50,289 bases of DNA, taken from NCBI GenBank assembly GCA_021208645.1, contig JAJOJL010000056.1, positions 1 through 50,289 of the forward strand, in the 5' to 3' direction. The DNA comes from Bacillus sp. (in: firmicutes) (GTDB taxonomy: Bacteria > Bacillota > Bacilli > Bacillales > Salisediminibacteriaceae). A program made the translations under genes and the position numbers. Shown piece by piece: positions 1,504 through 36,184 of this stretch (positions within the stretch are counted from its first letter, which is position 1; each line of letters opens with the position of its first letter). The notes beneath the pieces were generated by a model. It did no database searches, was not told where the DNA came from, and was given only the letters and a program-made list of their open reading frames with translations.

Positions 1504-1733
1504 TTATGGGTATCCCGTTTGCTCAGAATGAGATTTTTTTTGATTATTGAATTCAAGTGTTGATGAGATCGGAGCGAACGAGACTCCTGCGGGAAAAGCA
1601 ACCGCTGAAGACCCCGCAGGGTGTATTTCCCGAGGAGGCTGAAGCGTTGCCCGCGGAAAGCGAGTTCGAGTAGATCTCATCAACACGTTACCATCTTAAT
1701 GCCTAAATTCTGAGCTAGAGGGATACTCATAAT
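1504..1733. repeat. MITE-like palindromic repeat, copy 1
   Basis: The element has nested inverted ends. The outer pair reads TATGGGTATCCC...CTCAGAAT (about 1506-1530) against ATTCTGAGC...GGGATACTCATA (about 1707-1732). The inner pair is GTGTTGATGAGATC (1557-1570) against GATCTCATCAACAC (1673-1686). The GC-rich core contains GGAGCGAACGAGACTCCTGCGGGA and CCGAGGAGGCT, unlike its AT-rich surroundings. Copy 2 lies at 35893-36184 in the opposite orientation. No transposase is encoded, so this is a non-autonomous element. It lies between divergent genes. Open frames across it are not real genes. Confidence 0.8.
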
Positions 1734-34579: not shown

Positions 34580-34690
34580 CGTTCTTCCTCCTTTATAGTT
34601 AGTTTGTGAATTATGACAAAATATAAACAGGTAATAAATGTTGAAAAAGAGTATCGGCAGAATACCCCCGACACTCTTCTTGTAGTATGC

Positions 34691-35737
34691 TTAATTTAGT
34701 TTTCCTTTATAAGCTAACTTATCTATCTCACAGGAGTCATATGCCCCTGCAAGAATTTTCCTTACATCTTCTAACGTATCTGTTAGTTTTACATCCTCTC
34801 CCTTAGTCCCTGTATACTCTTCTGCTACATAAAAGGGCTGAGTTAAATAGGCTTCTAGTCTTTCTCCTCTTTGAAATGTTGCTCGTTCTACTTCTGGTAG
34901 TTTAGTCAAACCATTTAATTGAACGATGGATCGTAACTCCCTATATCTCCTCAACAATTTTTGTGCCTTTTGTTGAATAGTAAGATGGTGCTGATCTACA
35001 TGGGCCCCTTCTAAAACAGAAGAAGTGGAATATATTGGGTTCACTGCTGGATACATTCTTCTGGCCCCTAAGTCTGCATCAAACTGCCACAATGTTTCTA
35101 AGGGACCATATGGCAAATCTTCGTCAACAGCTTCCCCCTTTAAGTCCACAAGAAAAGTAGTTACAGAATCTATGCCAATATCCTCCAGTTTCTGTTGTAA
35201 AGAATGGATATCACCAGTTAATACATGGGATCTGTCTGCTGCAAATGCAATGTTCTTCGTCTTTCCTTGAGATGCCATAATTTCATAAGCAACTTCTCTT
35301 GTTTCTGTTACATAGTCCACTTCATCTAAAATATCTGCAACTTCCGGATGTTCTCCTTCTGGACTCAACAAAACAGTTGAATAACCAGCTTTTCTTAAAC
35401 GATGAAACATTTCTGCAAGGACAACTAACTGGCCCATTCCGTATCTGGCCACCAAACCAACCGTCCCTCCTTTTGCTAACGGAGCAAAAAGGTCCAATGT
35501 TTTAATACCCGTTTCAATCATATCTACCTTCTCCCCTCTAATAATTAAATCATCCAAACTGCATTCTGCAAGCGTAGCTAGAGCCACAATTGTCCTTACT
35601 TCTGATCGTCCAACAGGAATTTTTCCAGTACATAAATTAGATACAGTTGCTGGTCGTAATCCGACTGATTTGGCTGCAGTTGTAAGATTAGGGACTTTTC
35701 TTCTTAACAACGCAACATTTAAACGTAAATTATCCAT
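34691..35737 (-). CDS. XRE-type HTH fused to a P-loop-less F1-ATPase-beta-like domain
   Basis: 348 residues from the ATG at 35737, with GGAGG 9 bases upstream. Residues 3-68 form an XRE/Cro-type DNA-binding domain (LTTAAKSVGLRPATVSNLCTG, then LATLAECSLDDLI). From residue 73 it follows F1-ATPase beta: METGIKTLDLFAPLAKGG-type entry, then LLSPEGEHPEVADIL at the GER position, SVTTFLVDLKGEAVDEDLPY, DADLGARRMYPAVNPIYSTS, QQKAQKLLRRYRELRSIVQL, LTQPFYVAEEYTGTKGEDV and DTLEDVRKILAGAYD. Walker A (GGAGVGKT in F1 beta) is ARYGMGQL, and about 60 residues including Walker B are missing. It should not hydrolyse ATP; nucleotide sensing or ring assembly with DNA binding is inference. Confidence 0.8.
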   Translation of the reverse strand: MDNLRLNVALLRRKVPNLTTAAKSVGLRPATVSNLCTGKIPVGRSEVRTIVALATLAECSLDDLIIRGEKVDMIETGIKTLDLFAPLAKGGTVGLVARYGMGQLVVLAEMFHRLRKAGYSTVLLSPEGEHPEVADILDEVDYVTETREVAYEIMASQGKTKNIAFAADRSHVLTGDIHSLQQKLEDIGIDSVTTFLVDLKGEAVDEDLPYGPLETLWQFDADLGARRMYPAVNPIYSTSSVLEGAHVDQHHLTIQQKAQKLLRRYRELRSIVQLNGLTKLPEVERATFQRGERLEAYLTQPFYVAEEYTGTKGEDVKLTDTLEDVRKILAGAYDSCEIDKLAYKGKLN

Positions 35738-35762
35738 ATCTTCCAACCTCCTTAATTTATAT

Positions 35763-35813
35763 AGTAAATTATTTTACTTTAAAACGCAATATAAAATTAC
35801 TTTTCAAAGTAAT
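35763..35813. promoter_or_regulatory. two palindromes upstream of the HTH/F1-beta-like gene (possible operators)
   Basis: AGTAAA-TTAT-TTTACT (35763-35778) and ATTACTTT-TC-AAAGTAAT (35796-35813) are inverted repeats sharing an AGTAA half-site, located 25-75 bases before the start codon. Since the gene encodes an HTH protein, autoregulation is the obvious possibility. This is inference; the region is AT-rich and such palindromes arise by chance more easily there. Confidence 0.4.
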
Positions 35814-35826
35814 TATTATTACAAAA

Positions 35827-35860
35827 CAAATACACGATTGATAAACAACCGTGTATCACT
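35827..35860. terminator. hairpin, possible terminator of the helicase-nuclease operon
   Basis: ATACACGATTG pairs with CAACCGTGTAT (one G-T-type mismatch), and flanking ACAA/TTGT may extend it. On the minus strand it is followed by TTTGTTTTGT. It lies beyond the repeat that separates it from the addA-like stop, so assignment is uncertain. Confidence 0.45.
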
Positions 35861-35892: not shown

Positions 35893-36184
35893 AATGAGTA
35901 TCCCACAATCTCAGAATCATTAAAACTTTATCACAATGGTGACGTGTTGATGAGATCTTCTCGAACTCGCTTTCCGCGGGCAACGCCTCAGCCTCCTCGG
36001 GAAAACCCACCCTGCGTAGTCTTCAGCAGTTGCTATTCCCGCAGGACTTTGAGAATCTTCCTCGAAATAGCCCACGCACGAAGAAAATGTGTGAGCATTT
36101 TCGAGGAGTCTCGTTCGCTTCGATCTCATCAACACTTCAATACTCAAATAACTACCTAATTCTGAGCAAAAGGGATACCCATAT
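35893..36184. repeat. MITE-like palindromic repeat, copy 2
   Basis: The outer ends ATGAGTATCCC...TCTCAGAAT (35894-35917) and ATTCTGAGCAAAAGGGATACCCAT (36159-36182) are inverted copies, as in copy 1. The inner ends GTGTTGATGAGATC (35944-35957) and GATCTCATCAACAC (36122-36135) match copy 1 exactly. The core is 60 bases longer than in copy 1, with an internal palindromic AATGCTCACAC-type stretch (TGAGAATCTTCCTCGAAATAG...CATTTTCGAGGAG). It lies in the gap between the addA-like gene end and the HTH gene. Confidence 0.8.

What the first reader, a model, noticed from the sequence alone, without database searches (positions are those of the whole stretch)
34691..35813. HTH protein fused to an F1-ATPase-beta-like domain that lost its P-loop
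Seen directly: an XRE-type HTH at residues 3-68 followed by a co-linear series of F1-beta motifs (ETGIKTLDLFAPLAKGG, RMYPAVNPIYSTS, LLRRYRELRSIVQL, LTQPFYVAEEYTGTKGED). Walker A is ARYGMGQL, and roughly 60 residues that include Walker B are missing. Known: F1 beta and alpha form hexameric rings and are enzymes, not transcription factors. Inference: a repurposed F1 beta, perhaps sensing ATP/ADP or forming a ring on DNA as an energy-responsive regulator. I know of no described system of this kind. The upstream palindromes would suit autoregulation.
Basis: partly seen in the sequence, partly recalled or inferred. Interest (0 to 1): 0.9.

Follow-up and report, generated by a model that had tools for sequence, protein, structure and literature searches.

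The report
ATP-synthase subunit turned gene switch
A Bacillus-type bacterium carries a protein in which the catalytic piece of ATP synthase has lost its ATP-gripping loop and been joined to a DNA-binding head; it probably switches its own gene and, in relatives, genes for detoxifying enzymes on and off, a use of this rotary-motor part that I could not find described.

Summary
The ORF at 34691-35737(-) encodes 348 residues: a Cro/C1-type HTH where the F1-beta N-terminal barrel would be, then a beta-like domain (atpD E 2.4e-38; profile-profile E 2.8e-32; all 50 Foldseek rows shown are F1-type ATPase chains). It is no decaying gene: 88 of 397 genomes of the order match (4 with an internal stop), and the changed P-loop (AR..MGQ) is identical in 64 of 64 aligned orthologs. 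Correction: a Walker-B-like strand remains; about 50 residues are lost around it. The palindromes are operators by comparative evidence: 65 of 68 ortholog promoters have 16-bp boxes spaced 21-23 bp; tandem boxes occur in 77 of 88 gene-positive and 2 of 309 gene-negative genomes. Elsewhere, tandem or strong boxes precede M3 oligoendopeptidase (6 genomes), acetamidase/formamidase, alpha/beta hydrolases and an ABC exporter pair. Best reading: an autorepressing one-component regulator whose F1-beta-derived domain is a non-catalytic ligand pocket controlling a detoxification-like regulon. Energy sensing is not supported, a ring on DNA untested, the ligand unknown. Closest precedent: BzdR.

The parts
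34691..35737 (-). HTH-F1beta gene (348 aa, ATG start), autoregulator candidate
35540..35731 (-). Cro/C1 (XRE)-type HTH, residues 3-66; residues 27-40 invariant in 64 orthologs except Pro29 (61 of 64)
35426..35449 (-). Converted P-loop ARYGMGQL, residues 97-104 (GGAGVGKT in the AtpD rows compared)
35231..35248 (-). Retained Walker-B-like strand, residues 164-169 (Asp168 in 63 of 64)
35036..35053 (-). YPAVNP, residues 229-234: equivalent of nucleotide-contact Tyr345-Pro346 of bovine beta
34811..34846 (-). LTQPFYVAEEYT, residues 298-309: equivalents of bovine beta Gln416, Phe418, Phe424, Thr425
35752..35767 (-). Operator box 3 TTACTATATAAATTAA (weakest of the three, 12.1 bits), contains the putative -10 TACTAT (35761-35766)
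35774..35789 (-). Operator box 2 TTGCGTTTTAAAGTAA, begins with the putative -35 TTGCGT (35784-35789), 17-bp spacer to TACTAT
35797..35812 (-). Operator box 1 TTACTTTGAAAAGTAA
35819..35822 (-). Extra upstream half-site GTAA in phase
35747..35752 (-). Ribosome-binding site AGGAGG
   Evidence: read from the sequence
34642..34678 (-). Likely intrinsic terminator after the gene (11-bp stem with one G-U pair, 10-nt loop, T run); read by eye, not listed by the scan tool, whose loop limit is 8

Best explanation
A one-component transcriptional regulator. The N-terminal HTH binds tandem 16-bp palindromes spaced 21-23 bp (about two helical turns) that, in most promoters, cover the gene's own -35 and -10, so the protein represses itself. 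The C-terminal domain is an F1 beta that has lost catalysis and serves as a ligand pocket and/or oligomerisation module. Binding of a ligand would release the operators and induce the regulator and, where present, its targets: amide-, peptide- and ester-bond hydrolases (acetamidase/formamidase, M3 oligoendopeptidase, alpha/beta hydrolases) and an ABC exporter pair, i.e. a detoxification- or salvage-like response. Shown by comparative sequence: domain make-up, loss of the ATP phosphate site, operators, co-occurrence of operators with the gene, target classes. Inferred: repression (not activation), ligand-induced release, and the ligand (perhaps a neutral adenine-like or aromatic molecule with an amide or peptide bond, since base-contact residues are kept).
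For: Fold and family. P-loop changed but invariant. Operators: 65 of 68 promoters with an in-phase pair, 54 of 68 with 3 or more boxes, 0 of 3400 block-shuffled controls; second-last box begins TTG in 53 of 65, and the hexamers at the starts of the last two boxes are 17 bp apart in 57 of 65 (PWM trained on the same promoters). Independent tests: strict single box in 29 of 41 gene+ and 3 of 33 gene- genomes; tandem pattern in 77 of 88 gene+ and 2 of 309 gene- genomes, both exceptions inside coding sequence. Targets with boxes: M3 peptidase in G400, G472, G558, G584, G624, and a broken one in G758, whereas 43 of 47 distinct M3 genes examined in gene+ genomes have no box above 8.2 bits; acetamidase in G558 and in apparent operon with the regulator in G536, G424, G658 and L049, L053, L066; alpha/beta hydrolase in G586, G668, weakly G625; ABC pair in G586. 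In G758 regulator (one internal stop) and M3 target (frame ends after 111 residues) are both broken.
Against: No experiment. In the window's own genome (77% complete) only the self-site was accepted, its third box is weak, and its M3 and acetamidase genes have no boxes. 18 of 20 acetamidase loci examined have no strong own operator (one of these, in G425, a moderate box of 12.4 bits). In 8 of 68 promoters (L023, L027, L029, L036, L037, L041, L052, L066) the boxes found lie only further upstream, about 90-126 nt before the anchor, so they need not cover -35/-10 there. Some strict single boxes off-locus lie inside genes. Neighbourhoods are otherwise not conserved: no neighbour family in more than 19 of 86 loci. 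The promoter scan tool did not list the proposed -35/-10 pair. AF2 residues 203-247 are below pLDDT 50.
Confidence: 0.62

Rival explanations
1. Energy sensor: the beta-like domain reads ATP/ADP and the regulator adjusts energy-related genes.
For: F1-beta origin; base-contact residues kept; Asp168 of a Walker-B-like strand kept in 63 of 64.
Against: P-loop Lys->Gln in 64 of 64, Thr->Leu in 61 of 64; the position that carries the arginine finger in alpha (recalled) is Ser or Thr in 62 of 64, Glu in 2; the catalytic-Glu region is variable. The off-locus tandem sites examined precede hydrolases or an exporter pair, none ATP-synthase genes; the list was cut off, so not every site was seen.
Confidence: 0.12
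2. Decoy or target-mimic sensor: the domain imitates the F1 target of a toxic natural product, binds it, and induces hydrolases/exporter that destroy or remove it (logic like BlaR1, recalled).
For: Target classes look like detoxification; an HTH-less second copy in G431 also has three boxes, as a drug sponge might.
Against: The one inhibitor site tested, aurovertin's, is not kept: bovine A338->D, L342->R, Q411->E, R412->A, with Arg226, Glu295 and Ala296 in 64 of 64 and Asp222 invariant; site list, mapping mine. The N-terminal barrel is absent. No inhibitor is tied to these hosts.
Confidence: 0.15
3. The beta-like domain is only an oligomerisation scaffold; regulation is by protein level, with no ligand.
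For: Multiple boxes in phase suggest cooperative assembly; F1 beta is a ring former.
Against: Pocket positions are among the most conserved of the domain, more than a mere scaffold would require; target genes look like inducible ones (inference).
Confidence: 0.11

Closest known systems
BzdR (XRE HTH fused to a shikimate-kinase-like P-loop domain; PMC3602430, passages read)
   Same: XRE-type HTH at the N-terminus; C-terminal domain derived from a P-loop enzyme, without enzyme activity, that binds the effector; several operator regions on one promoter; repressor.
   Different: Different enzyme of origin (F1 beta, a subunit of a rotary motor); BzdR keeps Walker A, this protein has lost it; ligand here unknown; different regulon.
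F1-ATPase beta subunit (AtpD)
   Same: Fold, order of motifs, base-contact residues, C-terminal helical domain.
   Different: No N-terminal barrel, no P-loop Lys/Thr, about 50 residues missing, HTH added; separate from the three AtpD rows in the tree by a long, fully supported branch.
Mycoplasma F1-like ATPases (MMOB1670 and others; titles and starts of abstracts)
   Same: Repurposed F1 alpha/beta paralogs outside ATP synthesis.
   Different: Those are ATPases of gliding or other machinery; this is a predicted non-catalytic DNA-binding regulator.
BlaR1/MecR1-type sensors (recalled, not searched)
   Same: Idea of a sensor domain related to the drug's target.
   Different: Membrane signal proteins with a protease; no evidence of such a ligand here.

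Membership tests
F1-ATPase beta (AtpD) | Sequence/fold homology to beta | tested here: met
F1-ATPase beta (AtpD) | N-terminal beta-barrel domain | tested here: not met
   Residues 3-66 are HTH; homology starts at beta position ~123
F1-ATPase beta (AtpD) | Walker A Lys/Thr and catalytic Glu | tested here: not met
   K->Q 64/64, T->L 61/64, no conserved GER
F1-ATPase beta (AtpD) | Whole-protein score over the curated atpD cut-off | tested here: not met
   132 bits against 463
XRE/Cro-C1 one-component regulators | HTH of the Cro/C1 type | tested here: met
   HTH_26 in 51 of 64 orthologs at E <= 0.01; window protein alone below cut-off
XRE/Cro-C1 one-component regulators | Palindromic operators at own or target promoters | tested here: met
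   Comparative only:
XRE/Cro-C1 one-component regulators | Specific DNA binding in vitro | not testable with these tools
   needs EMSA/footprint
BzdR-type (XRE HTH + enzyme-derived effector domain) | Shikimate-kinase-derived effector domain | tested here: not met
   Domain is F1 beta
BzdR-type (XRE HTH + enzyme-derived effector domain) | Effector binding by the enzyme-derived domain | not testable with these tools
   ligand unknown
Aurovertin-site decoy of F1 | Conserved aurovertin-contact residues | tested here: not met
   4 contact positions replaced, the replacements invariant (site list)
Homohexameric RecA-like ring ATPases | Hexamer | not testable with these tools
   No multimer prediction available; half-sites about 10-12 bp apart are compatible, palindromic symmetry speaks against a plain C6 ring

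The most novel reading that the evidence does not exclude
A beta subunit of the rotary ATP synthase has become the sensor of a one-component repressor: the ATP pocket was converted into a receptor for a neutral, adenine-like or peptide/amide toxin (possibly an F1-targeting one), and an oligomer of these proteins holds three to four phased palindromes until the ligand releases exporter and hydrolases that destroy it.
Probability: 0.22. Interest if true: 0.92.

Novelty: new variant of a known kind. Interest (0 to 1): 0.78.

Why it matters
F1 beta is among the most conserved catalytic proteins (established knowledge), and in the searches I found no report of it as a transcription-factor sensor. 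Here it recurs in 88 of 397 sampled genomes of one order, with a self-contained operator code that makes its regulon readable from sequence. It is a clean case of an enzyme turned into a regulator, and the operator-linked hydrolases and exporter give a direct way to find the ligand, perhaps a class of natural toxins.

Tried and rejected
Chance resemblance or decaying atpD: rejected (64 of 64 share the changed P-loop residues A97, R98, M101, G102, Q103; 77% mean column identity). Artefact of one assembly: rejected (66 loci). Conserved gene neighbourhood as the clue to function: no neighbour family in more than 19 of 86 loci, several of them the same genome from two collections. Box inside a cation-symporter gene of Sutcliffiella: rejected, it lies in coding sequence. 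Single strict boxes in G421, G544 and G584 C1: inside ORFs, taken as chance; G569 C2:642050: beside an ORF with no Pfam match, unresolved. Boxes in the own genome at C81 and C68: inside genes, rejected. Pair sites in gene-negative G696 and G775 and in G769 C10: inside ORFs, rejected. Aurovertin decoy: residues not kept. Mobile-element carriage: of 16 plasmid records with a match one holds an ortholog, on an 897-kb Paenibacillus replicon; of 19 phage records none covers 80% of the query and the 10 listed match at 26-28% identity, as AtpD does. Horizontal transfer: the tree suggests mixing of genera but has many weak forks and long branches, not claimed.

Rows dropped before counts: L070 (fragment) from promoters and alignments; L017 and L018 from alignment A2 (same species as L016); 8 of the 55 listed M3 matches were not examined (47 were). 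In L205 the script picked the wrong ORF; that acetamidase (G424) was looked at again as L227 and has no box of its own. One search's match list was cut off at the end, so further off-locus sites may exist. Gene+ includes two fragments with a stop (G625, G640) and two full-length copies with one internal stop (G741, G758). 11 of 88 gene+ genomes lack the tandem pattern. The reversed-pattern control gave 14 hits in 13 of 397 genomes, so about 3% of genomes carry a chance hit; one search's control gave 1 hit in 41.

Full report
Observation. Window 34691-35737 (minus) encodes 348 residues. The HTH is Cro/C1-like: HTH_26 in 51 of 64 orthologs, weak in the window protein alone. The rest is F1 beta: atpD 2.4e-38, 6fkf 5.1e-33, profile-profile 2.8e-32. 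An AF2 model (mean pLDDT 71.3, pTM 0.65; residues 203-247 below 50) matches F1-type ATPase chains in all 50 Foldseek rows shown. The detail on Walker B needs correction: the profile alignment keeps that strand (Asp168 in 63 of 64) and places the losses, about 50 residues net, on either side of it.

Family. The search for related loci gave 66 loci, 61-76% identical, in Bacillales genera (one record is named only Bacillota). 40 of 199 and 88 of 397 (overlapping draws; 4 of the 88 with an internal stop) genomes of the order match. In a phylum-wide draw of 398 genomes only three match at ortholog level (the window's own, G395, and G158 of another class at 50% identity); the other best matches are E 2.8e-26 or weaker, 25-36% identical where listed, as AtpD is. 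In a tree with three AtpD rows as outgroup the family is one clade on a long, fully supported branch, with many weak inner forks. A second, HTH-less copy (269 aa, 40% identical) exists in G431.

What the domain can still do. The phosphate site is gone: Lys->Gln103 in 64 of 64, Thr->Leu104 in 61 of 64; the position of the arginine finger in alpha (recalled) is Ser or Thr in 62 of 64. Of the residues within 5 A of the nucleotide listed for bovine beta in PMC9615146 (passages), the following are kept: Tyr345 -> Tyr/Phe229 (38+26), Pro346 -> Pro230 (64), Gln416 -> Gln300 (64), Phe418 -> Phe302 (61), Phe424 -> Phe/Tyr308 (57+5, Leu in 2), Thr425 -> Thr/Ser309 (56+8). That these contact the base, and the residue mapping from the alignment, are my reading. 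This favours a pocket for a non-phosphorylated ligand; it is inference. The aurovertin pocket of the same paper is not kept.

Operators. Promoters of 68 genes (window, L005-L069, L072, L073) carry 16-bp palindromes, consensus TTAC[TG][TC]T[AT][AT]A[AG][AC]GTAA. At the threshold used 40 have three, 14 four, 13 two and 1 one (a contig end). Of 135 adjacent spacings 116 are 21-23 bp. Half-sites are thus about 10-12 bp apart, on one face of the DNA. The second-last box begins TTG in 53 of 65, and the hexamers at the starts of the last two boxes are 17 bp apart in 57 of 65, so in most promoters these boxes look like the -35 and -10. In 8 of 68 (L023, L027, L029, L036, L037, L041, L052, L066) the boxes lie only further upstream. 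The promoter scan tool did not list the pair in the window; TTGCGT matches TTGACA at 3 of 6. The PWM was trained on these promoters; 0 of 3400 shuffles reached an in-phase pair. Independent tests: a strict single box in 29 of 41 gene+ against 3 of 33 gene- genomes; over 397 genomes the tandem pattern in 77 of 88 gene+ against 2 of 309 gene- (Fisher p 2.8e-67, not corrected for relatedness). Both exceptions lie inside ORFs.

Targets. Besides the own promoter, tandem or strong boxes stand before: M3_not_pepF oligoendopeptidase in G400, G472, G558, G584, G624, and before a broken M3 piece in G758; acetamidase/formamidase followed by an alpha/beta hydrolase in G558; an ABC exporter pair followed by an alpha/beta hydrolase in G586; alpha/beta hydrolases in G586, G668 and, weakly, G625, which holds only a fragment of the regulator; the HTH-less copy in G431. 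The acetamidase is in one apparent operon with the regulator in G536, G658 (upstream) and G424, L049, L053, L066 (downstream, gaps -41 to about 30 bp by first in-frame start). Other neighbours of the same flavour, without proof of control: amidase (L057, gap 96), alpha/beta hydrolase (L069, gap 184; L013, gap 239; divergent in G659), drug-type MFS (Bhargavaea, L095), aminoglycoside-adenylyltransferase-like gene in Sporosarcina. Against: 43 of 47 M3 genes and 18 of 20 acetamidase loci examined in gene+ genomes have no strong box, so each genome would control few targets; in the window's genome only the self-site is accepted.

Mechanism. Boxes covering the core promoter argue for repression; the target classes argue for induction by a compound to be cleaved or exported. 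Ring or not: phased boxes fit a cooperative oligomer, but palindromes need two-fold symmetry between HTHs, so a plain C6 ring would need flexible linkers or another arrangement. Nothing here tests this.

Known work. Five searches for an F1-beta/HTH regulator returned no, one, no, five and no papers; judged from titles and starts of abstracts none describes such a protein, and only open-access PMC papers were searched. One of them led to the nearest design, BzdR (PMC3602430, passages). The Paenibacillus megaplasmid copy is annotated 'hypothetical protein'.

Noticed in passing
window 35968-36001 (+) and 1629-1662 (-): A 34-base G+C-rich stretch recurs (1 mismatch) in the window, apparently part of an intergenic repeat element just upstream of the gene; 0 expected by chance.
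   Followed up: partly
window 35829-35857 (-): Terminator-like hairpin (12 pairs) just upstream of the operators, which would insulate the gene from upstream transcription.
   Followed up: no
   Followed up: partly
L267 1626-1958 (-) and the regulator copy of G758: Regulator (one internal stop) and its box-bearing M3 target (111-aa piece) are both broken in the same genome, as expected if they work together.
   Followed up: yes
L028, L031, L032, L033, L035 (Sporosarcina), gene after the regulator: Aminoglycoside-2''-adenylyltransferase-like gene (PF10706, tested in L028 only; same cluster in the others) follows the regulator by 56-125 bp.
   Followed up: partly
own genome assembly G000: No match to the query apart from the window's own gene at E <= 1e-20, so no AtpD was seen; the assembly is 77% complete, so the atp operon is probably in a gap.
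   Followed up: no
G581 (L157 1977-2037) and G734 (L269 1696-1756): The strong operator boxes lie ~350 bp upstream of the regulator, near a divergent TetR-like gene (by eye), a different layout in this genus.
   Followed up: no
G425 acetamidase (L209): A moderate box (12.4 bits) 40 nt before the acetamidase start, a possible further target.
   Followed up: no
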